Assembly (NCBI GenBank): GCA_036924285.1
Contig: JAYKYS010000007.1
Location: forward strand, 12,896,001 to 12,960,000
Direction: 5' to 3'
Length of the DNA stretch: 64,000 nucleotides
Source of the DNA: Asterella californica
Lineage: Eukaryota > Streptophyta > Marchantiopsida > Marchantiales > Aytoniaceae
The notes under the pieces are model-generated. The model had not been told where the DNA came from and did not search any database. It worked only from the letters and a program-made list of their open reading frames with translations. This document shows, piece after piece, positions 16,361 to 61,501 of this stretch. Each line of letters opens with the position of its first letter. Position 1 is the stretch's first letter. Both the position numbers and the translations under genes were made by a program.

Positions 16361-16382
16361 CAACTCTCGATATCGAGAGTTG
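16361..16382. repeat. 22-nt perfect palindrome
   Basis: The half-site CAACTCTCGAT is followed at once by its exact reverse complement, with no spacer. It lies about 200 bases beyond the transposase relic and could relate to that element's end, but no matching partner was found upstream. Confidence 0.7.
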
Positions 16383-16859
16383 AAATGTTCATAAAGCGAC
16401 GACGTATTGTTGGATGTAAAAGTTGTGTCTAGGAACACACGAGGTATCTATGTAGAAGGTGTGGTGAAGTAAGAAAGACAAGAAAGAACACACGAGTTGA
16501 GAAAAATGAAGTATCCAATCCTGATCATTGATCAAATTTATTCACCTTTATATATAAGATTTACAAGCCAAACTTTGGAAGTATGTGGATCCTCACAAGT
16601 ATCTCAATCCTATAATTTCTCAACCCATATGTGTAGCTCTCAAAATTCTCTATCCAACGGTACCCAAACCACCCTAAATAGATATCTCCAACAAAAGTAT
16701 TTGACTTCTCTTGCTAGAAAACTTCTCCACTTGTTTCCTGAACTTGAATTTTCTAACACCAGCAGTAACTACTCAGAAAATGCTTTCCGATGATATCTTA
16801 CACATTCCAAGTCGATCTCCACTCAAAAAATTGCAACCCTCCCAAGTCGAAAATCTTCT

Positions 16860-19000
16860 TCAAAAAGGAAGTGCTTGAGGCCTCGCGCACTTTTGTTCCC
16901 AAGTGTTAAAAGTCTTCCCAAAAGTTCAAACGGTCACTGCTCTCTCAGTACGGTTCCAAATCTGATGATTTTGATCTCGTTGGAAAACCACAAAAAAAAT
17001 CTATCCAAAGGTATCAAGCACTCCTCAAACTGATCACTATAGGAAAAACTGTAGCCTTTTGAGTACTCCAATCCATTTTCAAGAGTAGAAGTACACGAGC
17101 TCTCGCGAGCTTTTTGTTTCCAAGTATTTTTCCCGTCACTGAATTGTGCAAGCCCTTGCGAGCTTCTGATTTCCTAAGACAAAACCTGTTCTGACCACTA
17201 AAGTGCGCGAGTCCTCATGCGTTTTTGACCTCCAAGCTCGTAGAGTGCAAGACCCCTCAAGCACTTCCTCGATACTAAGCAAGAACCCATCATGGTTGAC
17301 GGTGTCCGACCTCGACCCAAGTCCCGACCCAAAATCCAACAAAAATTCTGACAAAAATTTGGGAGGCTCTCTACATCTCTCTCAAATTCTTCACGAAATG
17401 ACCCTCGCAAGGTCTCCTTATATACTTGAAGCACCCCACTTGAAGATAATTGTTGTCACACCACCTGTCAACCATGCGATCTGCCACATGTCCATCATAC
17501 GACCATCCACCTTTGTCCAATCATACAGTAAACGTCTATCCAGTCAACACGATTGTGTCCATATCACAACTAATCAAAAACACTAACACGTCATCCAAAA
17601 TCTACATCAGCTTCTTACAAGTCATCGATCTGCCACATAAGCCTTCTTAGTGCCATGTCATCATTTCTCAGTGCCACGTCAGTGCTCACGAGATCATAAA
17701 CCCTAAATCTTCAATCGCACATAATTCTTTCTTTGTAGCTCAATTCGCTAGGATCTAAGAACTAATTTTCATCTATGCAACGGTGTCATATCATATGACA
17801 CAAAAGGTATATCAAGGAGTATGTGAGATATCTAGCTATGGAAATTTCATGGATCGAGAAACACGAACGTCAACGTACGAGCATGAACTTCAAATCCAAA
17901 ATCCTATTTTTAATTGCTGCTAATTATTCATAGAGTTTACATACAGACTCAGTGGTCTCATGTCTTAACACAAATCCTTAAAACCTTGATCTAATGCTAT
18001 AGCTACGTAGTCCTCGAAAAACTAAATCTGACGATACCTAATATGTCTTCTATTTACACTCGTGAAAGAAGCTACGTCACTTCTAAGCCCATGGTCTTCA
18101 AACTCAAAAATCTCCAACCTATTTATCAAAACCTATACTTGAAAAAATCTGGTTGTAAAAATCCGGTTCTGTCAGTACCCAACTAACTTTTCAAACGAAG
18201 TTATGGCACCCCGAAGTGTTTTACCCTAACCGTTCTCCACCAAGGTGAAATTATGCGAGGACCTCCTCAGTTTTGTATGGGGACCTAAAACTTCACCTAA
18301 ACTTCAAACCTACCTAATTTACACCGCTGCTCCAAATCAGTTATTTTTGGTCTTGTTAGAAAGCTTTTGGCAAGCTCTTTCCAACGGACCACTCTTACAT
18401 CCAATTGACTTTCACAGAAATAGTTGTGTATGAAGTTTCAGGCTGAGTCAAGATTGAAAACTATGCGAGGCTCGCACAGATTCGGACTCCTAATCTCCAA
18501 CCTTACCCAAAATACAGAAAATTTCACGAAGGCTAGCATAGTTTGGACAAAAGTTCTCAAAGTTCACCAAAAGTTTCTACCGGTTGTAAAATCATCTATG
18601 TAGTCTCAAATCTAATGTTTTTTGGTGTTATCAGAAAGCTCTTGAAGAGACCTTTCCAATGGTACGTAGCATGCACTGATGTGATATTTGTACAAACAGT
18701 TATGCCACTTTTAAGTTTTCTGACCCTCATTGAAGCTCAAACTGTGCGAGGGCTCATATAGTTTTGCCAGAAAACCTAAGGAAACAGCTGAAAATTTCAA
18801 ATGGTTGTAACTTCCTGTCCTTAAGTCCAAACTTTATGTTCTTGGTATCAGTAGAACGAGCTCGGAAAACAATAATCCAATGGTAACAATAACTCACGAT
18901 TCTGAACTCTGTAACAACCCTTCTGATCATTTTAGGTTATTTGCGACTTCTCAAGACAAAAAATTGTGAAAAGGCTCGTTCATTTTGTTACCGAAGACCC
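16860..19000. repeat. array of a dispersed palindromic word, LTR-like noncoding DNA
   Basis: About ten degenerate copies of a word whose best form is ACTGTGCGAGGGCTCGCACA are spread through this stretch, each often followed by GTTTTG or CTTTTTG. They lie near 16,871, 17,091, 17,146, 17,201, 17,244, 18,250, 18,457, 18,526, 18,738 and 18,961. Between them a phrase of the type TTTGGTnTTATCAnAAAGCT followed by TTTCCAATGGTA recurs (18,341, 18,620, 18,830, 19,440). There is no coding signal. Such phrases are common in plant LTR retrotransposon noncoding regions, so this is probably an old LTR or untranslated region. Compare 42,865-43,783. Confidence 0.55.
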
Positions 19001-19723
19001 AAAGTGACCAAAATGATCCCAATCCAACCTCCCAAGTCTTGCAAATCTAGGCAAAAAATAAACAGTCTCTCGACGCCTTCTCCAATATTTTGTAGATTGA
19101 ATCTTAGAATCCTCAGCTTTTATAGTGTTTGAAAGCTAGGGGTAAAAAGACATATGTTGTCCTCTGTGCGTGCCAAGTGTCATCTATGCATGCATGCATA
19201 TTGTCAAGTGTGTTGGACCGCCAAGTGTTGCATATGCACCGTCAGTCTAAACTGCCATCTCAACGCTAATTCCTCGTTAGTATCTCCGTCCAGTGAGCAT
19301 CCGCCGTGTCAGCATCTTGCTATGTCAGCTTGTCAGATGCCACATCAACCTATCAGACATTCCATCAACATCGTGACGTGTGAAACCTTAAAAATAATAA
19401 CTATTTGTAACTTCGTCCTCTCAACTTCATTCACGATGATAAAAATACCGATTTTGATCACCTCGACAAGAGCTATCCAATGGTGCAGCTCAAAAATATT
19501 TGAAACAATTTGATAAAATCCCATTGTAGAACCTCAGTTTGACACCATAGCCGGTCAACGACACGGCAGCGAGCTCTTCGTAATGGTGATGTCATATCTG
19601 CATTTTGAATAAGTTGCATAAAAATCCTCCCAAACCTTAGTTTTCCATACAAGCTGGTCAATGACACGACAATGATCTCGTCGACAAGAGTTGATCGATA
19701 ATATGATATATTCTAATATTCAT

Positions 19724-19757
19724 AATGTCCCAACTTCCTTTTAGAAGTTGGGACATT
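19724..19757. repeat. fold-back hairpin, 14-bp arms
   Basis: The left arm AATGTCCCAACTTC (19,724-19,737) is perfectly complementary to 19,744-19,757 across a 6-nt spacer. Confidence 0.85.
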
Positions 19758-19799
19758 GTATGAGATTAAAACGAAAAAATAATAACAATGATAGTTAAA

Positions 19800-22700
19800 A
19801 TGATCTAGGCAGAAGGGTCTCTCATCTCTTGTTCATCTAAAGATCAGATGACTTTGAAGTATTGTAGGAGAGTCAACCTCTCGATCATTGAGATCAGATT
19901 ATTACTTACAAATGAAAGCAAAAATTTCTCGACCGTCAAGAGTTAATTATAAAAATATGCAAACGATCAACAGAAATCATCTCAGGCTCTGGATTGTCGT
20001 GAGTCAAAATAAACATATTTCTCTCAAATTGTGAACGAACTATCATACTCTTGATTGTTCAATCTACATCAAAATCAAACTTTGTGGTGCAAACTCTTGA
20101 TATATTCTCAATATCGAGATCTCAGTTTCTTATATGTTTTTCATATAGAGGTCTACATGTTGAATGCCACATGCCTCATTTCCATGTCGAGTTACATTCC
20201 TCAAAAAGCTATACGTTGGCGTGTCATGGACTAGCTATGGTGTGAAACCATAGTCCTTAGAGAACTATTCCTCAACTTACTGCAAACATGGTTTTGACAT
20301 CAACATTAAATAGGTCTTGTTGAGAGGACCAACATTTGTGTTTTTATTGTTGCGAATGAAGCCAAGACTAGAGAATTAGGGCCGCTTTAACTTTTAGGGT
20401 TTGCTATGTCATGATGTTGACGTGGCAGATATGGCACTTTTTCTGAAGTGTCAAAGAGTAAAAAGTACGTAAAAATTAACACATGTCAATTTTTTGCTGA
20501 TGTAGCACTTTTTGTTGACGTGACAACTTGTTCACGTGATGATGACACATGGATTCACTCACTAGATTTTCTGGGAACACCTGAGTCTAAAAGAAGGATA
20601 TTTTTTATTATTTGAGCAAAAATTCTAAAGTATAAGGTTTCCAAAAAGAAGGTGGTTTTTATAACCATATCATCTTTACAAAGACAAAGAAGGTAAACAT
20701 TTATTGTAGAACGTGGTGATTTCATAAAAAACAATATATATATTTTTTCTAAGAAAGTTCTTTTGAAGCTCTCGGTGGATATGAGAATAGAATGTCAGAC
20801 TTGATGGATGGTGAATATTTTATAGTTAAACGAGAATAGGAGTCTTAACATAAATTTCTGGACTTACTCTTTTACTCGCGATCGTAGCACTGATCATAGA
20901 GTTTGCACGTTCTACGTTCAAAAACTGCATAGGGAAGGTCAGTAGTTCAAACATGATTATGTGCGACAAAGAACATATGGAAGACAAAATCTCTTGCAGA
21001 ATCTCATGCAAACTTCTCTTCATTTTTTGTTAGCGTTACGCGACACATAATTCATAGGTGATTGAGAACACAAGGGTTTGGTCGTTGTTGAGTGCATATG
21101 TGTTCGTGTTCATGGATCGCTCGAGAATTAAGCATCTTTGTAGCTTTATACGTAACGTAAGTCGTAAGAGGTAGAAAATCTAGGCAGCCTACAGACATAA
21201 TTAAGTATGCTCCAAATGCTTTCATAGAATCGGTAGGGTCTAGGTCATTAAAATTAAATCGTTAAAATAAATAGATTTGTAGAATAAATAAAATAAGTAA
21301 AATAAATCTAAGCTAATAAATAGTTTGTGCAAAAGTACTAAAGGATTGAATTGGATATTTGGCCTTCGTGCGTTGTTGGTCTTCTTTCTCGATCATGCAC
21401 ACTTTCTACAGCCAGATATCTCATGTATCCCGATCACATCTTTCGTGTCTTACGATACGACAACGTAAAGCACACAAGGAATACGTTGTAGGTTTTAACA
21501 ACTCTTATAATTGAACTTCTGTTTAAAAGATCTATCTTCAAAATTTTATAAAGCATTCATGACTTACGGTTCTATTTTGCAGTGTGATATATAACGAGCA
21601 TGATCACAATATATGAATAACAAACTTGCTAATTTGTTTGTAAAACTCAGAACAGAAGCTACTTGTTAGATGCACTCTATTAAATAAATGATTTAGCAAA
21701 AAATCCCAAAGAGTCACTAATGTTTTCATACCAGTCTTTATTAATTAATTTATGTTATCCAAGATTGCGGAGTGAGCATGTGAATATTTTGGGGAAAAAT
21801 ATTTTCCTCCGAATATTCGGAGTTTGTTGTCACATGAGTAAATCTGATTGACGAAAATCATCGGTGTTGGAATTCGACGAAGAGAGAGTCTTCGTAGTAC
21901 ATTGTCGTGATGTGAATCATTTCACATAGTAAATGATTCACCTCTCTGCTAGGAGTTAGTCTCTCTGAGTGAAGTTAAGACGTCAGAGAAGTCGATCCTG
22001 GAGGCTGTGGACATTGACGGATCCGGGTTACGCTTCTACTCCGACACTTGGGAGTTAGTAGCGGTAGAAGTTAGCTTAATGTTACTCCTAGTCCTTCATG
22101 CATATATTAACACCGTTGTGTTATACGTTTTAAGTCCTAGTAGGCTGATAGTATATGCGGAAACAGAAAAAGTGAAAATGTTTGGTCACGTGGGACAACA
22201 AACCTCAGGCTTAGGGTCATTATCTTTCGAAAAGATCTCTATGAACATTGCAAAATTACGAGACATGGTCGGTACTTTGAGTTCTTTGGAGAGACATGAA
22301 TGGATGATCAGAAACTCAAAATTTTAGAAAACTGCTCATGTGAAGCACCATCACGTTCACCTAGAGAAGCTTCTCATTTTCTATTCAGAAAGATACACGT
22401 ACAAGTTGCATGTCTCTTCTCTACTCGTTTCTGTCCTCTCCTCTCAATCCCTCAATGTCAAAACTGTCCTCAGTCAGAAATTCTCTCTAGCCTTAGTTTC
22501 TATAAACCTCTCTCTAGCTCTCTGATTCCTACTCGATGTCGATAATCTCCTCCATAGTCTCTACTCCAAAATGATCAGAAAAAATCTCTCCTCTAGAGTA
22601 CACTTCTTCTGCAGAAATTCCCTCCAGCCGCAAGCTATGTGTAAACTTCACTCCTCAGCTCTACTATTTTCTCTCTAGTCGATGATCTCCCTACTCGATT

Positions 22701-24700: not shown

Positions 24701-24712
24701 AAACCCTAAGTT

Positions 24713-25165: not shown

Positions 25166-25211
25166 TTGAAAGGTTGGCACATACCGGAGGAAGTGAAGGT
25201 TTGGAGGGGAT

Positions 25212-26060
25212 GAATGTCGTAGTGCGTGGCATTCCAGATGATGAAACGGAGCTTCAGAAGACACTCAACTGACATTTGTTTAAGAAGCTGCACCCTAGCT
25301 TATCAAGCTGAGCAGGAGTTAAGCTGAGGCTATATTCGTCAAGCTGCCCCCTAGCTTGAGATTGAGATATCATCCTAGGAAAGAGCGAAAAGTTTCAAAA
25401 TGCCGAGCTCACCGGGAATTCCCGGTGAGCTCTGCACGACGAGTACGACTTCATGCTTTCAGTTTCGAGAGAAAGCATTCTAGGTAATAGTAAGCACAAG
25501 TCTTAGATCATGAAAACAGCGAAAGAGAGAAATCTGTCGATTCTGACTCGTGATTCAAATTCATAATCTGAGAGTACGAGTGCGTTGGTGTTGACAAGTA
25601 CTACAGTTTTGACTCTTTATTCATTAAAAACGGAGTTGTACAGAGATGTTCGAGTAGATAATGCTAGTAAATGTTTCATAGAACATTTTCCCTCAAAAGG
25701 ATATGTACCAACTTTATTTCGTTTTTGAACGGAAACAGAGGCCATCCCAGTGAGAAGGCGCCCACCTCGGAGGAAAGTGATCTCAGGATCAATTCTCCCT
25801 GGCCTGTGTTTCTTATTCCGGCATGTTGTCCTCCTGGAAGGGAGTCTATGTTGGATATGCAGCCACGTCCTGCATATCTAAGGACGAGAGACCAGTATCT
25901 CCCTTAATCGTGGGCTTCCTGGCCTAAGCCTCCGCATGCCACCTTGAATATATCATCGGAGATACTTGGTGCACATATGAGGGGATTGTAACTCCAGTGA
26001 GGTGACCCTATAAGTGTTGAGACTTTGGTCTACATTGGATGACTTGTGGTATATTCAGAG
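25212..26060 (+). repeat. possible LTR of the Ty3/gypsy relic
   Basis: A purine-rich tract (GGTTTGGAGGGGA) at about 25,199-25,211 lies just after the integrase stop and is followed by TG. Some 850 bases on, a CA end near 26,055 is followed by TGGCATCAAAATGGC, which loosely resembles a methionine-tRNA primer site. No second LTR copy was found to confirm the borders. The 28-nt palindrome at 25,406-25,433 lies inside. Confidence 0.35.
25406..25433. repeat. 28-nt perfect palindrome
   Basis: The arm GAGCTCACCGGGAA is followed directly by its exact reverse complement, with no spacer. It is the longest spacer-free palindrome I found here. Confidence 0.9.
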
Positions 26061-26880: not shown

Positions 26881-26899
26881 AGAGCGGAGAAGATTATGA

Positions 26900-28544: not shown

Positions 28545-28699
28545 AAAATAGGGAAGATTAAACATTGTGCCGCTTTGAACGTGAAGTTTTGATACACTAT
28601 TACACTTGTTATAATTATGAGGGAAGTTTTGTGACACATGTGTTGTTCATCTGGAAGTTGAAAAGTAATGTTTATTAACAACAAGACACCATCCATAAC

Positions 28700-29639: not shown

Positions 29640-31880
29640 TGTTGGTTACAACTCTCTAAGTCTACGTAGTGCTTCTATAAATTCCGAAATATCCTCCTTT
29701 TGTTGTCTCGAGAGTTCTATTATAGTGTTCATTTTCCAAACAATATTTTTGCAACTACATCTATCTCATCTGCTATCCTCATGAATGACAAGGTCATGTC
29801 AAATAGCCGCTCAATCTCTATAAGCTCCACATTACTCTCAATGTGGACTTGGATTTTTCTACCGATGGATAAAATGTACAACTATCCATTGCAATGACAA
29901 GGTCTTCCAAAATGTCTTGAAATTCATCCGGGTGCTTTCTCTCAAGCTCCACATCAAAGATTGTGAAGCGAGTTTGTTTTGTGCATTCAATCCGATTTTA
30001 AAACGCCACTTCGTGGAGCAAATGATGTTTAGTATTTTATCTTGTTTTTCCTTGTTTAGTCCTTCGAACTTCTAAACTGTCATTCCCAAGAGCTCATTGC
30101 CAACCGTCCACACAATTATTATCGATAATGCGATTTCTACAAGATCCTTCACACTGTAATCAATCAATCCTAGATGAAATCGATATTATTTTCTATTTTT
30201 TTTTTGATCATATGGTCGCCAGATTTTTTGACCGAGCTATGATTGACTGAAATACAACATCTTCTTAACAAAGCTCGCATTCGTATTTGATTCACTTACA
30301 CGCTTAAGACACCCTGTGAAGTTTTATGCAACACAAGAGAAACTCAACTTATATTTTATTATGATTTCAATGAAAACCACTGAAAAAAAACATTATCGAT
30401 ACATTCTTCAAATTCAACAAACGAGCACATCATTTCTATAATTCATCAATTTTCCTCTGACGCACCAAAAACTTAATTCTCTGTATTACATCGTAATTTT
30501 CTACCATTCTAATGATAACGAGAATTTTCTTCGTAGTTAAATCTTGCGATCTTTCGATGATCATTCATCTGCACTTATAATCTGCTGCTTTCTCTTCTGC
30601 ATCGATTCTCTTCTGGAATCAAACGTCATTGTGACACTGTCCTCTCTTTTCCCACCTTTTTCAGTGAGACACATTTTACATCCGATTGTACGTTTTCACA
30701 TGCTGATAGTGACATAACTTATCTTACATGACACAGTATACTACCAGGACAGATTGAAGGTACGATCAAGTAACCATATTTGTGGCAGATTGAGAATATG
30801 ATGAAATAACCAAACGTTAAGAGGGGTATGATCAAGCCAGTTTCTGCCCGACAGAAGAGAAAGTGGTTTGCTTTGGAGTAAGAGAATTATCTGCATCCTT
30901 CCTGTGAAGGAAACCAAGAGAATTATCTTCATCGTTCCTGTGAAGGAAACCAAGAGATCGATTCATGAAACTATTCGAGTCGGGGATTTGTTCTTATTCG
31001 AGTCGGGAATTTGTTCTAATTCTCGCGCATTACACATAAGTAAAAAGTTCCGACGACATTTTACTTGGATTTCGAAATCTGTGCCCAATGTCATATGGTT
31101 GCAGCACAGTCCGGGTTACACCTCGCTTGTTATGCCCTCACCTACGAGGCTTGCAATCTAGGGTGCATACTGTAGCTTCCGATATTTTCATTGCATTTAG
31201 TGACTCCCAATCTCCACTTAAAATTCGTAGGGCGAAGGGAAATAAGCTCTTGGGTTGCAAACTGCATATCCAGCCTACGCGTGGTAAGGACAAGAAATTT
31301 CACAAACATGGTACTTGCACAGTGGTTAAAAGCAGCGTTCATCAGGGAGCTGCGAGATAAGGATTTTTTCAGCTCTTGGCCCTTCTTTTTTCTTTATTTC
31401 AGAACGAGAAACTTACGAAAATTTCCCCCTTCCCCTTCACAATCTACGTGTAGCTACGCTAACGCATTACAGAAATAAAGAGAAAGAAGAAAAAGCTACA
31501 TTTATGTTTTGCTAGCTTAATCTCTCATACATACATTCAGTGCGTATCACCGGAGGTACATTGAGCCACTTGGAATAAAAAAACTGATGATTGAGAATTC
31601 TGATTGTCCATGGGTTTACGGGTTAAAACCCTGAACTACCATAGATACAAGGAACGCAGATAAAGGGATAATCGACGTGACAGTCCGCTATAGAGATTCA
31701 CAAACCCGATTGAAGGTCCAACTTACGTATGAAAACATCCAAACTGAATTGTCTTTCGAAACAAGACAAATACCATAATTTATAGCGAAGATGCATACAA
31801 GGTCCTGAGAAGGCTGGCAGATGGTACTTATCGTGAGGAAATAAGGAATGCCATACTTCGACGATAGCAATGTTCCAATT
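29640..31880. other. no gene recognised
   Basis: AT-rich with short frames. One minus-strand stretch near 29,900-29,960 (DVELERKHPDEFQDILEDL) looks protein-like but matches nothing I know. A 33-bp unit is tandemly repeated at about 30,880-30,957 (phrase CCTGTGAAGGAAACCAAGAG twice). A 90-codon plus-strand frame at 31,088-31,360 is unrecognised. Confidence 0.3.
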
Positions 31881-31889
31881 ATACGAGTC

Positions 31890-32037
31890 GCACAATCCAC
31901 GTCAACAAACTGTTCACCAAGATGACTGTTGATTGCGAAAATGAATATCGATGTATGAACGACACAATCTGCGTCAATAAACTGTTCACCAAAACGACTG
32001 ATGATTGCAAAAATGAATATCGATGTATCAACGACTC
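31890..32037. repeat. tandem duplication, 75-bp unit, two copies
   Basis: A unit beginning CACAATCCACGTCAA at 31,891 recurs at 31,966 with few mismatches, both ending near AATGAATATCGATGTAT. Confidence 0.85.
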
Positions 32038-32039
32038 GT

Positions 32040-33395: not shown

Positions 33396-33399
33396 ATAC

Positions 33400-34235: not shown

Positions 34236-34606
34236 AGAAAGGTGCCTCCGACCAGCAGAACCCGATACCACAACGGCACAAACGGTACTCACAAGTTGTC
34301 CTACTTATTATATGTTCTCTTAATTTTGTTGCTATGAGGGAATGCGACGCAGTGAATATATGCATGCTGGATTTAACTCCGGTTTGCTCGCTTATTGTTA
34401 TCGGGAATATATATATACATATATATTAAATACAAAATATATATTAAGTAAAAAAGAATTAAATTATTATATAAAAATTATCTGTTATCCATGCCTGGAA
34501 ACACAAGGAGAATAAAAGATAATCCATAAGTCTTGACCCGAGTGTAGCGCTTCAGAAGATACAAGTCTGAGAATCTATACTATTAATACATTAATATACA
34601 TTGAGG

Positions 34607-34656
34607 TTAATTTAATACCTAACCCTTTCTGATGAAAGGGTTAGGTATTAAATTAA
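34607..34656. repeat. fold-back hairpin, 23-bp arms
   Basis: Arms 34,607-34,629 and 34,634-34,656 are perfect reverse complements across a 4-nt spacer (TGAT); the core of the left arm is ATACCTAACCCTTTC. A second, imperfect hairpin follows at 34,668-34,706 (CTTCTCCATC / GATGGAAG). Both lie just before a truncated retroelement tail. Confidence 0.92.
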
Positions 34657-34734
34657 ACTCCTATATATTCACCTTCTCCATCGGAAGATGGAAGAGATGA
34701 ATATGCAGGTGCTCAGAACATCCTGCTTCAGAGT

Positions 34735-36170: not shown

Positions 36171-36227
36171 TAGCATCATTGAGAGCTAGCTCTCTTACTA
36201 GTGATAAGGACAGGACAGCCTTTCCAT

Positions 36228-36274
36228 CTGCTAGGTGAGAGGATTGAGTACTACTCAATCCTCTCACCTAGCAG
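36228..36274. repeat. fold-back hairpin, 23-bp arms, at a LINE breakpoint
   Basis: Arms 36,228-36,250 and 36,252-36,274 are perfect reverse complements with a single-base spacer. The right arm is coding sequence of the LINE reverse transcriptase (minus strand, FLLGERIE); homology stops inside this structure. Confidence 0.93.
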
Positions 36275-36873
36275 AAACAGTGGTGGCTCTTGCCTAGCGC
36301 CCATGACCATACACTTGGTTTTTCTCCGATTTAAAGACGTATGAGAAGCAACACATAATTGTTCCAAGACATCTAAATGATTTTGCATCTGATCTGGTGT
36401 GCATGCTAAGAGGACAATATCGTCTGCAGATATCAGCAAATTGTTCCAAGACAAATTCGTCTAACGTAACCCCCTTATCGCCTGATTCTAGGAGCAGCTC
36501 ATGCAGCTCATCTATAAAGATGCCAAACAATGTTAGAGACAATGGACATCCTTGAATGACGTCCAAAGTACTAGTCATAAAATCAGGCACCTCTTTAGCC
36601 AATTTGATCTTGACGGTGGAGTAAAGTTGAGCCACTGCATTCCGTAATCCAGTAGAAACTCCAAGTTTCTCCATTCGTTGCCAAAGCCTTTGTCTGCAAA
36701 TAGTGTCAAATGCCTTACTGAAATCAATAAATACAGCGAAGATGGTATTTCTGGAGGTCCTGAAATCGCTCTGTGGTAGCTCTCATAGTCAAGATGTGAT
36801 CGAGAGTGTTAAAGTTGGATCTAAATGCTGCTTGTGTTGGAGCCCTAAGGCCATTATCCTCTGCATAAGAACT

Positions 36874-37080
36874 TGTAGAAAGATCGATACTTCGAGGACA
36901 CTCCAAGAAGAGAGAGAGAGCAAGTAGACAAGGAAGTAAAATAGGAATGAGTAGTATATAGTGGAGGTGAGTACAAGGGAAACCCTAATGGTGGGTTAGC
37001 CCTCTAACTAACTCTAACAACCCTAACCACTCCGGCTAATGGTAGCCGTCGATCTACTAAAGCTTGGGACTATATCAACA
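36874..37080 (-). repeat. Copia 3' LTR (207 bp)
   Basis: It reads TGTAGAAAGATCG...TATATCAACA on the plus strand and matches 41,426-41,656 except for five transitions and one missing segment of about 24 bases. On the minus strand it begins TGTTGATATAG and ends CTTTCTACA. Confidence 0.96.
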
Positions 37081-41425: not shown

Positions 41426-41656
41426 TGTAGAAAGATCGATACTTCGAGGACACTCTAAGAAGAGAGAGAGAGCGAGTAGACAAGGAAGTAAAATAGGAAT
41501 GAGATGAGAGAGGCTTTGCCTCTCTCTGTATATATAGTGGAGGTGAGTACAAGGGAAACTCTAATGGTGGGTTAGCCCTCTAACTAACTCTAACAACCCT
41601 AACCACTCCGGCTAATGATAGCCGTCGATCTACTAGAGCTTGGGACTATATCAACA
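41426..41656 (-). repeat. Copia 5' LTR (231 bp)
   Basis: Pairs with the LTR at 36,874-37,080. It carries about 24 extra bases containing a small hairpin at 41,506-41,526 (GAGAGAGGC, TTT, GCCTCTCTC) just before a TATATATA run. Confidence 0.96.
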
Positions 41657-44560: not shown

Positions 44561-47500
44561 ACGACTCAATAAACTTTATTCCAATATCAATTTTACCACC
44601 AAAATCTTAAGTGATCAAAAACCTCTCCTCTCACTCATGCGCGTCTCTCCTCTGCTCTCAATCCCGTTCTCTGTTCATCAAATTCACCTCCAAAACAGTC
44701 TAGTAGATGAAATTCAGACCCCTGACTCTTATTTCTCTCTCTATGTCAACCTCCCAACTGAAAATTCTTAGAAATTTGATCCAATGACGATCAAAAGTCC
44801 TTCACAGACTATCAAATCAATCTCTACTCAATAAGACTACGTCCTGTCCATTCAAAAGATAGTTTTGCTTCCAAAACAGTATAATAGACAAAGTTCAAGC
44901 TCCTAAACACTTGTCCCTCTCTTCGCGACGACCTCTCAATTCAATTGTCTCAGAAATTTGATCTTCTCAGCTCCAAGCTTCTCCTTCACATCCCCGACGG
45001 CTCCTCTTCTCTGGGAAAAAAATAGCATACCTCCTACACGACATTTCACCCAACGTCGACTATTCTCTTCCAACTACTGGACAAAACTTTCGAACACCTC
45101 TCCTGAAAATCACACCATACTTCCTCGACGGTATCTTACATTTCGCACTTTCTGAAATCATTGGTGTATCTCCGATCGTCTCGACAATGCATCCCACTTT
45201 TATAGCACATTGTTGTTTCAGAAAGAGTTATGAACAATGTAATCCAGCATGTCGCGTTTATTAGAGTGTATGAGAGAATAGAGTCTTAACATAAGAATGT
45301 GTATCATTCACACTTTCTCTTCTCGTCCAAATAAGTTAATCTATAATCTAAAAATGCTTTTCTATACTCAGATTTTTCTTTGAGACATTCCTCGTATGCA
45401 GAACTCAGAACTATGCACTTTACTACTTCGAGCTGATTCTAAGTCTCATCTCTCAACCTTGCTCGAAAATGTTACTTTCAGTATTGCTCTACTAGATCAT
45501 CTCCAACACTTTCTTCATCTTCTTTGTCACCTTCAGTGTCCGGTTCAATCTCTGATACGCCATGAGCTGCATGATGTAAATCTTCATAAAGAACCTCCGA
45601 TTGTTGATATCTCATCAATTGCTAATCAGCATACTTTGAATCATCTATGTATTCATCATCATCCAAGCATGTGATAGATAAGAGTAGTCTGTTCTACTTC
45701 ATCATCATCTAAACTCAACGAAGATACAACAGAAGGATCGATGTTAACTATGCTTCCAAACACATCATTCATACGATCAAAATTTGGACAATGAGCATTC
45801 AACTTTCATTCCAAGGTAACACTGTTCGTCATCTCAAGAACTGTCTTTTAACTTTTGCGTCTTCTTATACATATCGATGTATCGAGTCACACATTTCTTC
45901 AATTCTTCACAGGTGACTATAGAAAATCCATCTAGTCCAGAAATATGTACCGCCATGATGTTGAAGGAATAGCTTTCTTCAAAGTAAGCTCAACTAAAAG
46001 TGATTGTTTAAACTTTTCTCTCGGACCGGCGTATCTGAACACACCATCTGAAATCATAAGTCAAGTTGAATTTAATATACTTAACATCAATATGTATTAT
46101 TCTTATACAGAATTTGGAGATGAATAAGGTTGGAAATTCATGGCTAGCCTTTGGACCTTTGATCGAAAGAGGGCTATCCTTTTTGCTTGGAATGCCTTTT
46201 TCAATCTCTAAACGTGTGGTTCAAATGTGATACCAAGTCGAAGATTATTACAAAAACATTAGCTTGAATAATCTCAAATTTCTGTTATCTCTAAATCCAA
46301 TTTGAAGCTACTGAAGTCAAATCTCTTGGAACAGATTCGTAAAGGATATTCGTAATGGATATCAGTCCGAATGTGTATTCGAGAGCATGACCAAAGTTAC
46401 TTCTGAACTGCCAATTCCATCCACACGTCACAAAAATTTATTTGGAAAAGTAAAACTCTAAATATCAAAAACATATACATAACTTCTTTATTCTAAGTAT
46501 ACATGCTACACCATTTATCGTAATCAGGATGGATCCAAAATTACTATGGATCATAATTTAGTCTAGACCTCATAAGTACATACTATTTTGTGTGATTGCA
46601 AAGAAAAAAAACCTCCTTTATATTAATATGGAATATATCCACATCAATATAGGTGTATGACATACACCTATATTAACGTCAAAAGACTTAACCTCATATA
46701 CTCTTATCATCTTGAACATTCTTTTTTACTCAGAGCAAAACAAATTTTTTAAGGGACAAGATGTAGAAGACGTGGAATGTTTTTAGAACAGATTCATTTG
46801 TTCTTCAGAGATAAAACAAACATGCTTTGAGAGTTGAAAAAGCTGGAGATGGTGAAGAAAGCTCAATGGTTCGATAGTTTACGTAATGATATATCTTGGT
46901 CAAGTAAACTGAAACATATGAGGTCCAGATATATTTTGCAACTAGTAGCGAAATGTAAATGCACAACTATACGTGTTCAAAATTATCTTTGGTCGAACAT
47001 CTATGATCCGATGTGATATTGCTCTTGATGTCACTAGAAATTGATATGAAAAGCAACTAAATTGAGAGTTATAAATTACTATACAAAAACATACAAAATA
47101 TTTTGAAAGTGAATCGGTGACTCTACATCACGAGCTTCTGAAGTTCGAGGAGGAGAAAGCAAACAATATTTCAGTTCTAAATTACTTTTTGGTATAATAC
47201 CACTTTGAGAATGTGAGAATATTTTATTTATCATACTTCAGATGTGCTTCCGATTTTAAATTATCAAAGATTTTACTATTTCAATCCTATTTTATATTAA
47301 GAAAACATTTTGTCTCTACAGCTAAATTGAAGTGAATGAAAACTAAAACATTCAAACCTATTATATTGTACACCGATTAGTATGTCACATAATATAGTAG
47401 ACCATACTAATTCTTGTGAACTAGATCTTAACGTCTTCATGTTTTACATGACCAAGTAATTACTATAAACGGTGTAGCTCTATCTACCATACGGAATCGT

Positions 47501-49449: not shown

Positions 49450-49475
49450 ACGTCTTCATCTGGTAGTGAAGACGT
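49450..49475 (-). other. hairpin just after the SOS1-type stop codon
   Basis: Arms ACGTCTTCA (49,450-49,458) and TGAAGACGT (49,467-49,475) pair perfectly across 8 nt. In the minus-strand transcript this stem begins 1 base after the stop codon, in the 3' untranslated region. Confidence 0.5.
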
Positions 49476-49476
49476 C

Positions 49477-55400: not shown

Positions 55401-56008
55401 GTCAAGTACTTCGGGACAGACTCTGGTCAAGGAGAAAGACGAATTTTCTGATGTTTAGGGTTCGATCTGTGTCTTATGTCGGGAAAGTTGCCCATTGAAT
55501 CCTTCAATCTTATTCATTTTGAGTGCAGAAGTGTTCTAGAGCTTGTCCAATAGGTCTGCTACTCTCAGCTTTTCTCCTATCTTCCTTGTCCGAGTCTTGG
55601 CTTGTTTAATGGTCTATCCTGCACCAAAGTGATGTTAAACACCTCCTCTCAGTTGCATCGCCACTTGAGCTTCGGGATCTCCCTTCGGTCTTCTAGTCGT
55701 TCTAAATCAACTCCTCCTGCACCGCTACTCCCGGAGAGCTTTCACTGCATAGCCTCCAGCCGAGGTCTTCGCTTCGTATTACCATCTCAAACAGCAGGTC
55801 TATATTCGAGTAAAGGCCTCGAATATAGACCTGAGGGACTGTCGGCGTCTAGCCGACGGAAGTTTGACGCAATAACAGGTCTGTGATGCCCTTAGATGTT
55901 CAACACGCGCTACACTGATGGACTCAACGAGTTTATAACCTGGGCCGAAAGGTCTGGGTAATCTTTTCAAAATCCATCGTGATGGGGATAGATCATTGCA
56001 ATTATTGA

Positions 56009-56082
<74 letters not shown>

Positions 56083-56083
56083 A

Positions 56084-56118
<35 letters not shown>

Positions 56119-59100
56119 AGTTCGGATCGTGGCGACGATCCGAACTCTTCAGGTGTGCAGGAATACGCTTCGTTTAGCTATTGATGTACCTGTGCAGACA
56201 AGGAAATTGCTCAACCGATTTACCTTACGGTGGCCCTTCGACAGTACGAGAGATGTGGCCCTTCTACATACTTCTCCCTTCAAAGGGTTGGAACTCTCAG
56301 AGAAGAATTCCAATCCTAGGAAGGTGCAACATTTCACTCTCGGAACGAGGTCTGAACCCCACTCCCAGTTCCTGTGACGGTCTACTTTCTCCCTTGTCCC
56401 ACTATATAACCATTACCCCACATTTTGAGACACTCGTCTCCAACTCACACCACATCACACCATATTTTGCACAAGTTAAACATCTTTGTGATGGATCCGG
56501 TGGATGAATTGCCGGTACACCGATACACCTGTCGACTGTCCTCTATCCAACTAATTCCAACAAATCGCTGGCGAAAATGTTGAAAAGGGTGGAGAAAGAA
56601 GGCAGTCTTCAGCCATCCCTTGATCTACCCCGAAAGGATCTGATGTTTGACCTTGATCAGTACCGCAATCTTGGTGAGGTCACCTTGGTGGTATAGCTTC
56701 TCAACTACCCGCCACATCTTCCCTTGTGTGCTGCATTAATACAGACGGTATGACAGCCATCTCCATACGGTATCCTGAGCCGTCTTCACATCAAGGAAAA
56801 ACAGAAGTGGGCTTCCCTTCTTTCTTAGGCCTTGGACAATCTGGCTTAGTGTGTAAGAGTTCAACAGACCCTCGTTGTCTTCTGAACCAGCTAAAAGAAC
56901 TGTGCCAACATGATTCAACTTATCGCTTGACCACACCACAGTCAATCTCGTCAGACTAAGACCTCAACGGATCCATTCGAGCAGCAGTGACGTTCCTCTG
57001 GCTCCACGGACTATGTACCAATTCTGCCTTAAATTGCCACTAACCATCAGAGCTTGACTGCCTTTCCTCTTTTACCCCTCTTAGCCTATGCCGGGTTATC
57101 CTAACTATGAGAACAGACTCACCTCAGAAGACAAAATGTGAATAATTCCGGCGATAAAGACTGTCTAATAAACCAAAGTCCGAAAGGTCCCAGAGGAGTT
57201 GCGAAGTACCATTCAAAAAGCGTATTCTAGTGTCTTGCAGGATTAACCTCCGACTTTCCTCTCCAGAAGCACTTGCTCCATGAGGATGCGCAGGAGCTGT
57301 CACGTCAGCCGGATATCGCAAGACGCTAACATACTTGCACACAGTTGACCATTCTGCCGGCCCTAAATCTTCATCCTCTCCCAGCTCCTGAAACGACTCG
57401 AGAGCTTTTTCATACATTTCATATCTTACGTATTTCAAAACCAGCTCCTGCATTGCACAACAAAAGAATTCGTCACGCCCAAAAGAAAAGGAATTATACA
57501 AAGATGTAAAATGCGTTCGTAAAAGTCCGAAATCTCATCAACGCGTTGAGATTTATATAGCGTCAACTGGTTTACGATGCATTGATTCTGCTTCCTTCAT
57601 TGTACATATACTAACCCGAAACAAGGCAGAGCTCTGAGAACCAGTTTCTGATGCAAGCTCACCAATCACCCAATTAACTGTCATGCTCTTTTATCATATT
57701 TCTAACCTCTCTTTGCTAGGTACATGAAACTCAAATTTGAGCTCCTACAGTACAATGTGAGCTTCAAACTCCAAATTTAACAGCATCAGGGAGCCTCAAT
57801 AAAGGTTTCTAGTAGTACACATAGCACTAACTTGCTTTAACTGAAGTAACCTTGCGTAAGCAGTCAAAGAAAATTTGTAACTTATCCTTAGTATAATCGA
57901 AGCTGGGTTGCAAAAGCACTGTAACTTGTTGACTATTCCCATACCACATCCAGGAAAGCAGCCAGACATAAGTTAAGAGCCTCAATGGCGAAAAAAGAAC
58001 GGGATTTGAAACCGGAAAGAAGAGAGTTATTATACATGAGTTCAACTCCAATCAGTAAAAGCAGAGGGAAGTGGCACGTGAAATGAACGAGCAGCCAGGC
58101 AAACGAGTATACAGTATAACCGGCCTAAAGTTATATCCTGTATAAAGTTATCAAAATTTGACTGTCCCAAGATGGGACAACAGGATAAGTTATAACCTCT
58201 GTGTTTAAAATCATAATTTTTCAGCAAACCAACTCTCCTCTAGAATAAAAAATCCTGATCTGTATTCTCACTACGTGCTTCTACGAAACATGTCCAAAGT
58301 AGACTGGAACCTAGATGCACTACTACGCTTTGCACAGTCATGATAATATGTTGCTCTCTTTGATGTGAAGAGGTTGCCAACTTCTATAGCTCACAATTCT
58401 AATCCATGAGTTGCCGCTTTTCTGCCTCAACCTTCGTTAGGTTATAACTCTTCCTAAGTAATACTTTTTGTCCGAGCCATACGTTATAACTTTACGGAGG
58501 TTAAAGTCTACAAACAGTTTGTCGCACAAAGGTCACTGATGGAGCTGTAGGTAATGAGTAGGTATACACTCAAGAACCTAATACCACAAGATACTGGAAA
58601 AGCACATACATTCATACGTCGAGAATGGCAGATTTTATCTAGTACTTAGGTAGCTCGCAAGTAACCCGGCCAAGATACTGGAAAAGAAAATAGAAACACA
58701 CCTTTGTTTCAGAAGTGTGATCCATGCCTAGCGCCTTGAGTAGAAACTGAGTCGTGGACCCATTGATAATCAGAGTCAAAAACACAACTCCGCCTGTGAA
58801 AAAGACGAACTACCGCATACAAACAAGACGCATCAGACCACCACACCTCCCACACGAGATGCATATGACAGTACAATAACAACAGATGCGGCCGTAGACT
58901 GAAGCCGTTGCTTGATCGAATGCGTGAAACCTGAAATACATATTCAGTACTTCTGAAGCCAGAGTGTTGAATGGACATATGCTGGTCTATGTGATTAACA
59001 ATTAGTGTTTAATAGCTGGAGATATTATATCCAGCTCGAGTTTGCACCGAAGACTTTGTGACATGTCAACGGCCTGAATCTGAAGGAGCTGTGTGGTAAA

Positions 59101-60170
59101 ATTATCATCATGAGTGGTGTGTTTTCCGGCTCTCAATCTCGCAAGCAACACAAGATCCTCAAACGTCTTTTCAGTTAGAACATAGCGGAATGGGACTCAC
59201 GAAGTAGGAGAATTTAACTTCGCGTTACACAAATGATGAAGAACTTACTTCATTCGGTTTACATTTACAGCCTTCTGACTGAAACAACAAGTAAATATCG
59301 AGCATTGCAGTAGATGCCTTCATACATGGAGATGGACACGAGGTAAAAAACCCAGCTGCAGAAAACAAAAGAGAACTCTCTTAACTCTCCTGAAATTTAG
59401 AGCATATACAACAAGAGTAGACAACCAGGCACTTACCTGATTCTCTGTCCTCTTGGTGATCAGAGTATATCCTGCTGATTCTGCTTCGCCTACTTGCTGC
59501 AAGACACGAATTGAAGGTCAAGTGACTTTGTTCACCGTCCTATTCTATCGAATAACTTCTGACACTAACTTCCTCAGGGTGATAAGAAAATCTAAAACAG
59601 CTGAGAAAATGAAAATTGTCAGGTTCAACGTTCCAACTTCTGAACGTTATAGACATCGCAGGACTCATAACAGACAACTACCCGATATGCGCACGGCGAG
59701 GAAAGGAATTATTGCCAGTGCGGGGTACCGCATTGGCAATAATTCCTTTCCAATCAGAGTTATTGCCAATGCGGTACCCCGCATTGGCAGTAACTATGAT
59801 GACTGAATTTACAGCATCGAAAGCAACGTAAACAGAGTTTCTTCGTGCGGTACGGACCTTCAGCTAATTGCAGTTCTCAGCTGAAACGCTGTATAACAAC
59901 TACACAGTTAAGCACTCCAGAAGAGAATAAGAGGCGAGCGGTATTGATGTACGCACTGTCTGGAGATGGAAACAGTATAACTCACAGCCACAGATAAGGA
60001 GAGTGATAAAGCAACAGCTCCACGAAGTCCTGACCAGATAAGCATAGTTGCTTCCTTCCAGTCCATACCGTAACCAAAGTACTTCAACCCTGGGTACAGC
60101 ACGACGACTACCACCACTCTCGACAGCTGAAGGGCGACATACAGCAAAACCAGATATCCCCAATCCTTTC
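49477..60170 (-). CDS. SOS1: SOS1-type plasma-membrane Na+/H+ antiporter, C-terminal 13 exons
   Basis: SOS1 exports sodium across the plasma membrane in exchange for protons and is activated by SOS2/SOS3-type kinase phosphorylation of its tail. I traced 13 exons, 5' to 3': 60,170-59,986; 59,496-59,437; 58,809-58,702; 57,447-57,210; 54,691-54,594; 54,443-54,236; 53,942-53,845; 53,663-53,532; 53,123-52,905; 52,709-52,500; 52,176-51,924; 50,422-50,124; 49,833-49,477. All junctions are GT-AG and phases agree, giving about 820 residues to the stop. Exon 1 has the last transporter helices with YGMDWKEATMLIWSGLRGAV; exon 3 has FVFFTGGVVFLTLIINGSTT. Then come ELVLKYVRYEMYEKAL, VQAAYWEMLDEGRI and VLRVIKTKQVTYAVL. 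The cyclic-nucleotide-binding-like domain contains HPTFPHGSTLGLYECL and HCFFIDS. The tail ends in an acidic run and IESPSKLF, matching the regulatory S-P-S site. Exon 2 (60 bp) is less typical. Exon 12 may start at 50,413 instead (tandem acceptor). Some 330 N-terminal residues are missing. Confidence 0.93.
51020..51815. repeat. dispersed repeat, copy A, in an SOS1 intron
   Basis: Shares ordered phrases with 54,936-55,590: GTGGCTGAACGGTGCTAGA, CAGAAGAGACAGCTA-like text, CACATTCGTCCTCACCTTCC, TCAGGCTGACCCCAA, GATGCTACCTGC, CTTAAAACTTCAA and GTCTTATGTCGG. Inside copy A the first 60 bases are duplicated (51,021 and 51,112). There is no coding domain; it looks like a nonautonomous transposable element. 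Confidence 0.75.
54936..55590. repeat. dispersed repeat, copy B, in an SOS1 intron
   Basis: Second copy of the repeat at 51,020-51,815, same orientation, with many substitutions and some length differences. It lies in the 2.5-kb intron between exons 4 and 5, just before the rRNA fragment. No terminal repeats or target duplication could be fixed. Confidence 0.75.
55795..55833. repeat. fold-back hairpin at the left edge of the 18S fragment
   Basis: Arms CAGGTCTATATTCGAG (55,795-55,810) and its exact reverse complement (55,818-55,833), spacer 7 nt. 18S homology starts at or within a few bases of the right arm. Confidence 0.93.
55834..56134 (+). rRNA. nuclear 18S rRNA gene fragment (3' domain), degenerate
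   Basis: The plus strand matches the 3' part of nuclear 18S rRNA. It runs from the GGACTGTCGGCGTCTAGCC helix through GGCAATAACAGGTCTGTGATG, CATCGTGATGGGGATAGATC, GGAATTCCTAGTAAGCGCG and TTTGTACACACC to ATTGAATGGTCCGGTGAAG. It is a dead copy. Bases are missing after CTTAGATGTTC, there are substitutions such as ACCACCCGTC for ACCGCCCGTC, and both the 5' three-quarters and the last 100 or so bases are absent. It lies antisense within an SOS1 intron, with a fold-back hairpin at each end. Confidence 0.93.
56115..56150. repeat. fold-back hairpin at the right edge of the 18S fragment
   Basis: Arms GAAGAGTTCGGATCGT (56,115-56,130) and its exact reverse complement (56,135-56,150), spacer GGCG. The left arm and spacer are 18S sequence; the right arm is an inverted copy of it replacing the expected 18S continuation. 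Confidence 0.95.
56500..57010 (-). pseudogene. LINE reverse transcriptase fragment in an SOS1 intron
   Basis: The minus strand reads LNSYTLSQIVQGLRKKGSPL, LFFLDVKTAQDTVWR, then WRVVEKLYHQGDLT and QGMAEDCLLSP. These match the L1-like reverse transcriptase palm (F-F-L-D-V-K-x-A-x-D-T-V-W-R). The frame shifts at least twice and the catalytic A-D-D block is absent. It differs from the LINE at 36-43 kb in these blocks, so it is another family. Confidence 0.75.
58515..58660. repeat. SINE-tail-like and 'CATACGTCGAGAATGG' repeat pieces
   Basis: 58,520-58,592 (GAGCTGTAGGTAATGAGTAGG) matches 61,545 and 62,440. Next to it, ATTCATACGTCGAGAATGG at 58,610 recurs near 60,770, 62,862 and 62,948, each time followed by CAGATTTTATC or a variant. 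Confidence 0.7.
59700..59794. repeat. four alternating copies of one arm (double hairpin)
   Basis: Arm 59,700-59,723 pairs with 59,728-59,751 (24 bp, one G-T mismatch, 4-nt spacer). Arm 59,759-59,774 pairs with 59,779-59,794 (16 bp, one mismatch, 4-nt spacer). All four contain ATTGCCAATGCGG or its complement, in alternating orientation. It lies in the intron between SOS1 exons 1 and 2 of this window. Confidence 0.93.
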
Positions 60171-61448
60171 CTGAAGAAAAAATATATCAGACTACGCAAT
60201 TTGTTGAGCGATAATTTACAGAATGAAGAATTCCAAACCTTTACGAAATACGAGTAATGGACGACTTACTGAAACTGTAAAGAAGTGTTACACGCTAACA
60301 CAAACAGACTCACGCTGTTTCCTCACATTGTTATTCATTATTTGTACACTTCTTGCTTTTACTTCTGATGATAAAAATCTATACTTATCTGACCATTGCA
60401 TAGACCTTAAACGAGAGAAGGCCGAAAGTAGCGCAGAGAGGTCGGAAATGGCTTTACGACGCACACGACATGTCCGATCGATCCCCTTCCTCTTTGACGT
60501 TTACATACATTTGTCCAATTCATGCATAATCTTACAGCACATCACGACCAGATAAAGCGAGACCGTCAACACGCACTCAAAAAGATAATTCATGCAGTGT
60601 GAGTATTCGTGTAGAAGGGTTCGGCCCTTCTTTCGTAAAGAAATCTCCGTCGAACCCAAGGAGGACTCGACAGAGTGAGGTGTATATTGGTACACAGGAA
60701 CGGCAGATTGGACCACACCCACACACTGAAGGTAACCCCCAAAAACGCAGTGAACCCGGTGAAGTACATATATTCATACGTCGGGAATGGCAGATTTTAT
60801 CAAGGACCAATTTACGTACATCTTGCTGTAGTAAAGATGGGTGTGAATGTATGCTATCTTCAGTCGTGAAGATAGCTGATGTCTGTAACCAAAAGGTGTA
60901 ACCCGGCATAGTATAGCACAGGGCACGATGCTGGGGATGGTACTTCCAGGTATGGAGGTGCAAATATATGAGACATGTACAATATGCAGTGCGGACAAAA
61001 AGCAGACTGTATCATCTATGTAAGGTGTAATATTAGCCAATAATAAGCAGCTTTCTGAAAAACAGTAACTTCGCCCGCACACTTAGATAACCCCCAAATA
61101 GTTTTGAACCAACCCAAGTACCAAGTGAGTAACAAAGAGTGGTAACATGTATGCTAACTTGGTTCGAGAAGTCAGCGAATGTAAATACCCGAGGTCAGGC
61201 CAAGGAGAAATGTGCAGGGAAAGCACATTTCCAAAATGGTACCCCCAGGTAGCTGTAAGACAGAAAACAAGTACAAATTGCGATGCCTAATGATCTGAGC
61301 GAGAGAGCAGCTATAACTGTGTAATATAGGTCGATAATTCGGGAAACAGAGAACATGAAGGGCAAGTTATCTAGAAAATGAGAAACTTAAACACAAACAT
61401 AAACATACAAAACAAAAAACATACATCGTCCGGAGAGCAAACAGGAGG

Positions 61449-61501
61449 CATCAGGGAATAATCGAGCACACATTTACAACGTGCTCGATTATTCCCTGAT
61501 G
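61449..61501. repeat. fold-back hairpin, 21-bp arms
   Basis: Arms 61,449-61,469 (core AGGGAATAATCGAGCAC) and 61,481-61,501 are perfect reverse complements across an 11-nt spacer. Confidence 0.93.

What the first reader, a model, noticed from the sequence alone, without database searches (positions are those of the whole stretch)
16361..61501. Many near-perfect fold-back hairpins scattered through the window
Inverted repeats with long arms and tiny spacers occur at 19,724, 21,912, 34,607, 36,228, 41,506, 46,646, 55,795, 56,115, 59,700, 59,759 and 61,449, plus spacer-free palindromes at 16,361 and 25,406. Arms reach 21-24 bp, most with no mismatch. For random sequence, 64,000 start points times about 12 spacer lengths times 4^-16 gives roughly 0.0002 expected hairpins with 16-bp perfect arms; I count at least six. 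Sequences differ from one another, so this is not one transposon family. A process that copies a strand end back on itself (fold-back priming, polymerase-theta snap-back, or template switching) would make unrelated hairpins like these.
Basis: partly seen in the sequence, partly recalled or inferred. Interest (0 to 1): 0.78.

Follow-up and report, generated by a model that had tools for sequence, protein, structure and literature searches.

The report
Fold-back copying scars in liverwort DNA
Several of the short, near-perfect hairpins in this liverwort chromosome are scars where a DNA end was copied back on itself during repair or replication, and comparing repeat copies shows which arm was there first and which was added.

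Summary
In detail: 8 window sites have perfect arms of 14-24 bp and spacers of 12 or less; Markov controls give 0-0.1 per 64 kb. Three of the 13 listed features (34607, 21912, probably 16361) are inherited parts of repeat families.

Ten sites, seven in the window, have an informative sister copy. In eight (window 25405, 46646, 55795, 56114, 61449; elsewhere L002:2714, L046:305, L105:6227) one arm is old and the other is a new inverted copy of it. One (19724) is a hairpin-sized gain with the new arm unresolved. One (41506, 9-bp arms) is present whole in one LTR and absent from the other.

The best case is a 304-bp piece of 18S rDNA inserted in a repeat with a fold-back at both joints. The host is probably a complex thalloid liverwort (one protein) and encodes polymerase theta.

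The fold-back idea is supported. The event type is known (template-switch mutation; fold-back templated insertion). What stands out is the density, roughly 1 per 23 kb in the part sampled. Whether that means a high rate or long persistence, and repair or fork, stays open.

The parts
55795..55833 (+). Left joint of the rDNA insertion: arm 1 55795-55810 (old target sequence), loop 55811-55817, arm 2 55818-55833 (new inverted copy)
   Evidence: Empty-site copies L071-L074 run from the left flank through arm 1 into the right flank at 56152; arm 1 identity 9-14 of 16, arm 2 0-2 of 16. L038 also lacks the insert but has an extra 20 nt within arm 1
55834..56137 (+). Inserted fragment of nuclear 18S rRNA gene (3' part)
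   Evidence: Rfam RF01960 over 55914-56016, E 8.9e-20; 92-95% match to longer dispersed 18S copies and 99% over 209 bp to rDNA contig L014
56114..56151 (+). Right joint: arm 1 56114-56130 is native 18S, loop 56131-56134, native bases to 56137, then 56138-56151 = new inverted copy of 18S; target resumes at 56152
   Evidence: L014 (rDNA) and L010-L013 have arm 1 (14-16 of 17) and go on differently after the loop; arm 2 6-10 of 17, of which the first 3 bases are native
61449..61501 (+). Fold-back scar: arm 1 61449-61469 old, loop 61470-61480, arm 2 61481-61501 new, replacing about 18 nt
   Evidence: All 7 fetched paralogues (L075-L081, of 40 scored matches) fit arm 1 at 16-18 of 21 and arm 2 at 6-8 of 21, both flanks aligned
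25405..25441 (+). Spacer-free palindrome: arm 1 25405-25418 old; net 24-bp insertion from 25418/25419 to 25441/25442 = 18-nt inverted copy plus about 5 nt filler
   Evidence: 8 paralogues L082-L089 (of 9 fetched) match arm 1 at 11-13 of 14 and have a gap over all of arm 2; L089 aligns on the left only close to the scar. L090, aligned, is left out because its left side does not align
46646..46674 (+). Fold-back scar, spacer 1: arm 1 46646-46659 old, arm 2 46661-46674 new, probably grown from an old quasi-palindrome (TATGAACATA in L096 and L099)
   Evidence: L096-L100 (5 of 6 fetched): arm 1 8-13 of 14, arm 2 2-3 of 14. L101, aligned, left out: it does not align on the right
19724..19757 (+). 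Hairpin-sized gain relative to three distant paralogues; which arm is new is unresolved
   Evidence: L091-L093 align on both sides with a net gain in the window; arm 1 0, 7, 8 of 14 and arm 2 6, 4, 2 of 14
36227..36275 (+). Longest perfect hairpin (arms 24, spacer 1), just beyond an open frame on the minus strand that looks like a reverse transcriptase (label recalled, not searched)
   Evidence: Only self hits in the genome search; not testable
59700..59800 (+). Zigzag of about four passes of one sequence in alternating orientation
   Evidence: Three overlapping hairpins; only self hits in the genome search
34607..34656 (+). Hairpin that belongs to a high-copy family of about 340 bp (window about 34380-34720), with a second consensus hairpin near its end
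   Evidence: 39 other scored copies at 81-86%, many with the reverse self-match over query 214-290; alignment of 14 of 29 fetched copies; clusters
21912..21941 (+). 11-bp hairpin that is shared by copies of a repeat starting near 21903
   Evidence: 39 other scored copies at 96-98% over about 198-205 bp; hairpin cluster of 5 loci
41506..41526 (+). 9-bp hairpin in one LTR of a Copia-like element (label recalled), absent as a whole (24-bp gap) from the other LTR at about 36874-37080
   Evidence: LTR alignment; gain or loss not decided
16360..16383 (+). 12+12 palindrome, part of a repeat; most of it is present in paralogue L092
   Evidence: 96.97% over 33 bp in L092

Best explanation
The single-locus hairpins are scars of inverted templated DNA synthesis. 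A 3' strand end folds back on itself (or switches to the opposite strand), anneals by a few bases, copies about 14-24 nt of nearby sequence, is released, and is joined to the other side, often by short microhomology, with loss of 0 to about 28 nt. Repeated rounds give zigzags, and a copied or captured fragment from elsewhere, here 18S rDNA, can be added between two rounds. Shown: which arm is old and which is new at 8 of 10 informative sites, with insertion or replacement at the joint. Inferred: the strand-end fold-back itself, that the untested single-locus hairpins arose the same way, and that most events are end joining of a broken DNA end by polymerase theta or a polymerase acting like it (about 0.6 for broken ends). 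The confidence below is for inverted templated synthesis, whatever the setting.
For: Read by eye from these alignments: 56114 starts from a 2-bp CG stem; 46646 starts from an existing 4-bp inverted repeat seen in some paralogues; the return joint shares 3 nt at 61449 (ATG), 46646 (TAA) and L002 (GAG). At 55795-56151 both hairpins have the new arm on the same side, as one strand synthesised left to right would give. Three non-family sites are zigzags (59700, L046, L105). A polymerase theta exon is present: the best 7 of 60 listed PDB matches of L106 are all Pol theta, E 4e-26 to 9e-24. Purified human Pol theta starts stem-loop synthesis from two terminal base pairs (PMC11292364, abstract and passages), and yeast makes inverted duplications of mostly about 5-34 bp at breaks by fold-back (PMC11724301, abstract and one results section).
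Against: 41506 is absent as a whole from its sister LTR, which does not fit old arm plus new arm. 19724 is unresolved. For L002:2714 the two more distant copies L007 and L008 do not discriminate (11 and 11-12 of 20). The spacer-free palindrome at 25405 and the 1-nt spacers at 36227 and 46646 are too tight for simple self-folding and fit a switch to the opposite strand better. 61449, L002 and 25405 show no clear starting stem. Joints at 55795 and 56114 share only 0-1 nt. Nothing identifies the polymerase. No raw reads or other strains could be checked. Most of the sampled hairpins were not tested.
Confidence: 0.85

Rival explanations
1. The same inverted copying, but at replication forks (short-range template-switch mutation between nascent or parental strands) rather than at broken ends. 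This is a rival on the setting, not on inverted copying as such.
For: Near-equal replacement at 61449 (about 18 nt out, 21 in), tight or zero spacers at 25405, 36227, 46646, growth from a quasi-palindrome at 46646. Template switching is known to create perfect hairpins (PMC8794818, abstract and one section).
Against: The rDNA fragment with fold-backs at both joints and 4-6 lost target bases, and the L105 zigzag at the meeting point of two unrelated repeats, look like end joining.
Confidence: 0.35
2. The hairpins are one or more families of mobile inverted-repeat elements (MITE, Helitron-like end, foldback element).
For: 34607 and a second hairpin near it are consensus features of a high-copy family; 21912 is shared by family copies; 50 and 27 of 147 imperfect hairpins in the sample fall into two clusters of this kind. 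41506 is present or absent as a unit.
Against: The 8 resolved single-locus hairpins have one arm that predates the hairpin; no target duplication was seen in the alignments. 36227, 59700 and L010:2566 have only self hits.
Confidence: 0.05
3. Assembly or library artefacts.
For: No reads could be inspected; fold-back chimeras are a known artefact class (recalled).
Against: 25405, 46646, 61449 and L002:2714 lie inside repeats that align on both sides; 25405 carries a change in one arm relative to the copied sequence; zigzags and an rDNA insertion occur.
Confidence: 0.04
4. Hairpins kept by selection (microRNA or regulatory stems).
For: Perfect stems of 20-24 bp are of suitable size; template switching can make microRNA loci (PMC8794818).
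Against: Those with paralogues sit in diverged repeat sequence and are unrelated to one another; no expression data were available. The only Rfam match in the window at gathering score is the 18S piece.
Confidence: 0.03

Closest known systems
Short-range template-switch mutation (four-point model), great apes and RNA genes: PMC7954356 (passages), PMC8794818 (abstract, one section)
   Same: A nearby stretch is copied in reverse complement in one event, making a perfect hairpin; length gain, replacement or loss.
   Different: There found by comparing species; here by comparing repeat copies in one genome, among hairpins picked for long arms (14-24 nt; great ape median copied length 12), with multi-turn zigzags.
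Fold-back templated insertions at double-strand breaks in yeast: PMC11724301 (abstract, one section)
   Same: Short inverted duplications (most about 5-34 bp) by fold-back; other end joined with 0-5 bp microhomology; distant insertions also occur.
   Different: Induced breaks in yeast needing Pol delta, starting from a 10-bp imperfect inverted repeat with a 41-nt loop; here natural scars in a plant genome, short loops and little starting homology, enzyme unknown.
Polymerase theta stem-loop synthesis in theta-mediated end joining: PMC11292364 (abstract, passages)
   Same: Start from two terminal base pairs, short inverted insertion, then joining through the new end.
   Different: In vitro, human enzyme. 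In mammalian cells inverted-repeat insertions are under 7% of a class of repair sites (passage).
Quasi-palindrome correction (seen in listings and in a passage of PMC7954356)
   Same: 46646 probably grew from an existing imperfect inverted repeat.
   Different: Other scars show little or no starting repeat.

Membership tests
Template-switch mutation (four-point, any mechanism) | New segment is the reverse complement of a nearby pre-existing segment, absent from the ancestral state | tested here: met
   8 of 10 informative sites; 19724 unresolved, 41506 present or absent as a whole
Template-switch mutation (four-point, any mechanism) | Single event flanked by collinear sequence on both sides | tested here: inconclusive
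   Both flanks align for 25405, 46646, 61449 and L002:2714, and for 55795 to 56152 once the insert is left out; not for 56114 alone, L046 and L105, which are joints between different sequences
Theta-mediated end joining with templated insertion | Fold-back starts from about 2 bp of terminal pairing | tested here: inconclusive
   Seen at 56114 and 46646; not evident at 61449, L002:2714 or 25405 (by eye)
Theta-mediated end joining with templated insertion | Return joint with short microhomology and small deletion | tested here: inconclusive
   3 nt at 61449, 46646 and L002; 0-1 nt at 55795 and 56114; deletions 0 to about 28 nt (by eye)
Theta-mediated end joining with templated insertion | Depends on polymerase theta | not testable with these tools
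   A Pol theta polymerase-domain exon is present at C102:2883946-2884320; dependence needs mutants
MITE or foldback transposon | Whole hairpin inserted as a unit with target duplication | tested here: not met
   One arm pre-exists in sister copies at all 8 resolved scars; no duplication seen in those alignments. 41506 differs as a unit, without a decided direction
MITE or foldback transposon | Many copies with the same hairpin | tested here: inconclusive
   Not met for 36227, 59700 and L010:2566 (self hits only); met for 34607 and 21912

The most novel reading that the evidence does not exclude
This liverwort lineage makes fold-back copies at an unusually high rate relative to point mutation, as if its break repair or its single-strand protection were biased to fold-back synthesis, so that tens of thousands of datable inverted scars (about 23,000 by simple extrapolation of 11 sites in 249 kb to 517 Mb) and fragment captures with fold-backs at both joints are written into the genome.
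Probability: 0.3. Interest if true: 0.72.

Novelty: new member of a known kind. Interest (0 to 1): 0.52.

Why it matters
Repeat families give built-in ancestral states, so one plant genome could supply thousands of resolved fold-back events with start stem, copied length, turn number and return joint. That would let one ask which polymerase and which setting (break or fork) makes such scars in nature, and how new perfect stems, the raw material of small RNA genes, arise. A land-plant archive of this density would be useful if it proves unusual; if other plants look the same, it is an ordinary but under-used record.

Tried and rejected
One mobile hairpin family for all: rejected, because one arm is old at each of the 8 resolved scars and three searched loci have only self hits. 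34607 and 21912 as separate events: rejected, they are family features; 16361 probably likewise, from one paralogue. L052:2251, L068:2141 and L069:2934 dropped as relatives of the 34607 family. L047:666 is shared with L070 and sits where a related family has a hairpin, so it may be a family feature; it is still in the count of 10. L048:2261 was dropped as AT-rich, L025:66 and L061:928 were kept though AT-rich. L056:1843 and L061:1848 lie just past the end of a 34607-type element; no fetched paralogue spans them, so no verdict. L010:2566 has only self hits. A strand preference: all five resolved window scars have the new arm to the right; L002 has it to the left. With so few this is not significant and I make no claim. 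A TPRT origin of the 18S insert (cDNA of rRNA made by a LINE enzyme): not favoured, because the old arm at the right joint is the 18S side, against the direction that cDNA synthesis from the right would give; not excluded. An age profile from mismatched arms was tried (147 imperfect hairpins in 209 kb against 29 in three simulations) but family copies and short arms blur it; no conclusion. A density comparison with other plants was not possible: no eukaryotic genome collection is on hand. Papers: listings; I saw nothing on natural fold-back scars in liverworts there, which covers only those term sets, the listed rows and that library.
Full report
Observation. The hairpins are real as sequence. 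One search found 17 perfect hairpins with arms of at least 10 and spacers of at most 12, and printed the 12 with arms of 11 or more; 8 have arms of 14-24. The mismatch-tolerant scan listed 11 places, among them these 8, and showed that 59700-59800 is a set of overlapping hairpins. Ten simulations each at Markov order 1, 2 and 4 gave 1, 0 and 0 hairpins with arms of 14 or more in all; one hundred each at order 1, 2 and 3 gave 0.02, 0 and 0 sites on average.

Where it lies. The window is contig C627:12896001-12960000 of a 517-Mb genome. An open frame at 3928-5007 (minus) is an EXORDIUM-like protein (PF04674) whose best relatives are Marchantia paleacea (74%) and Riccia fluitans (72%), so the host is probably a complex thalloid liverwort; this is inference from one protein.

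How many elsewhere. In 65 other loci (209 kb, fetched as repeats with their neighbourhood, hence not random; one search also held four short ones, 210 kb in all) one search lists 33 rows with arms of 13 or more. Leaving out members of the 34607 family and its relatives, the CAGGTTT array, L048:2261 and AT runs, and arms of 13, I count 10 sites: L002:2714, L010:2566, L025:66, L033:1147, L046:305, L047:666, L052:409, L056:1843, L061:928, L061:1848. L025 and L061:928 are AT-rich; L047 is shared with L070 and may be a family feature. Four 10-kb stretches gave 1 site in 40 kb, a zigzag at L105:6227, listed as three overlapping rows. Together 11 in about 249 kb. The extrapolation to about 23,000 per genome is rough.

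Which are inherited. The 34607 hairpin is part of a family of about 340 bp with 39 other scored copies at 81-86%, many with the same hairpin. 21912 lies in a repeat with 39 other scored copies and the hairpin is shared by at least 5 loci. 16361 is largely present in paralogue L092. These are not separate events.

The rDNA insertion. Between 55818 and 56151 lies an insert that other copies of the host repeat lack. The fetched copies L071-L074 run from the left flank through arm 1 of the first hairpin into the right flank at 56152, with 4-6 bases between that the window has lost; L038 also lacks the insert but has 20 extra bases within arm 1. The insert holds an 18S rRNA gene piece (RF01960, E 8.9e-20). 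At its left end arm 2 is the inverse of the target's own end. At its right end the 18S sequence, which in rDNA contig L014 reads on past GGCGACG, instead turns back and copies 14 nt of itself before rejoining the target. So both joints carry a fold-back, and in both the copy is on the same side, as a single strand synthesised from left to right would leave.

The other scars. 61449: all seven fetched paralogues (of 40 scored matches) fit arm 1 (16-18 of 21) but not arm 2 (6-8 of 21), and both flanks align; about 18 nt were replaced by 21 nt of inverted copy. 25405: eight paralogues match arm 1 (11-13 of 14) and have a gap over arm 2; the 24-bp gain is an 18-nt inverted copy plus about 5 nt. A ninth fetched copy (L090) does not align left of the scar and was left out. 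46646: five paralogues match arm 1 (8-13 of 14) and not arm 2 (2-3 of 14), and three of them (L096, L098, L099) show an older short inverted repeat from which it may have grown; a sixth (L101) does not align on the right and was left out. 19724: three distant paralogues align on both sides and the window has a hairpin-sized gain, but the arm identities (0-8 against 2-6 of 14) do not say which arm is new. L002:2714: here arm 1 is the new one; L004, L005 and L006 match arm 2 at 19-20 of 20 and arm 1 at 10 of 20, while the more distant L007 and L008 (11 of 20 for arm 1, 11-12 of 20 for arm 2) do not discriminate. L046:305: two tandem units of about 90 bp both hold arm 1, and after the second the sequence turns back on itself twice.

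Results that do not fit or are undecided: 41506 is present whole in one LTR and absent from the other; 19724 is unresolved; 36227, 59700 and L010:2566 have only self hits; 39502 had no paralogue in the held sample; most of the sample hairpins were not tested.

Mechanism. The common denominator is inverted templated synthesis next to old sequence. Two settings can do this. Fold-back of a broken end fits 55795-56151, 56114 (2-bp start), the zigzags and the 3-nt return joints. A switch between strands at a fork fits the zero and one-base spacers and the near-equal replacement at 61449. I put about 0.6 on broken ends for the majority and 0.35 on forks. A polymerase theta exon is encoded. One exon each of the other two DNA_pol_A loci matches Pol I-type polymerases best; these are probably organellar enzymes (recalled).

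Known or new. Fold-back insertions of mostly about 5-34 bp occur at yeast breaks (PMC11724301: abstract and the section on local fold-back read). Pol theta extends stem-loops from two terminal pairs (PMC11292364: abstract and passages). Template switching creates perfect hairpins (PMC8794818: abstract and one section) and explains 4017 events among great apes, with a median copied length of 12 in the best-supported set (PMC7954356: passages). So the kind is known. I saw no report of such scars in a liverwort in the listings, which is a narrow search. The density cannot be called a high rate: liverworts may simply keep perfect hairpins longer because they mutate slowly (recalled), and no other plant genome could be scanned here.

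Noticed in passing
L010-L013 (matches to window 55833-56137): Dispersed 18S fragments at four loci share the same downstream chimeric joint, a hairpin (ACGACATGTCGG...) and a common flank, as if an rDNA piece had become part of a repeat family.
   Followed up: partly
L017:1730-1990, L019:1730-2010, L031:1376-1450: Arrays of short hairpins with the motif CAGGTTT...AAACCTG next to 18S fragments; 19 of 147 sample hairpins fall in this cluster.
   Followed up: partly
window 13298-13808, 14613-14808, 30880-30957, 31891-32035, 61715-62368: Several tandem duplications of only 2-3 copies (periods 252, 96, 36, 72, 216 bp; 89-96% matches), another possible repair signature.
   Followed up: no
window 34380-34720; L042-L070: High-copy family of about 340 bp with two consensus hairpins near one end and no terminal inverted repeats that I could see; class unknown.
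   Followed up: partly
L056:1843, L061:1848: Perfect hairpins some 10-20 bp beyond the end of two different copies of the 340-bp family, perhaps fold-backs made at insertion.
   Followed up: partly
window 41506 and 36874-37080: The two LTRs of a Copia-like element (label recalled) differ by a 24-bp hairpin-bearing stretch.
   Followed up: partly
window 25405-61501: All five resolved window scars have the new arm on the right; too few to mean anything, but worth testing against replication direction.
   Followed up: no
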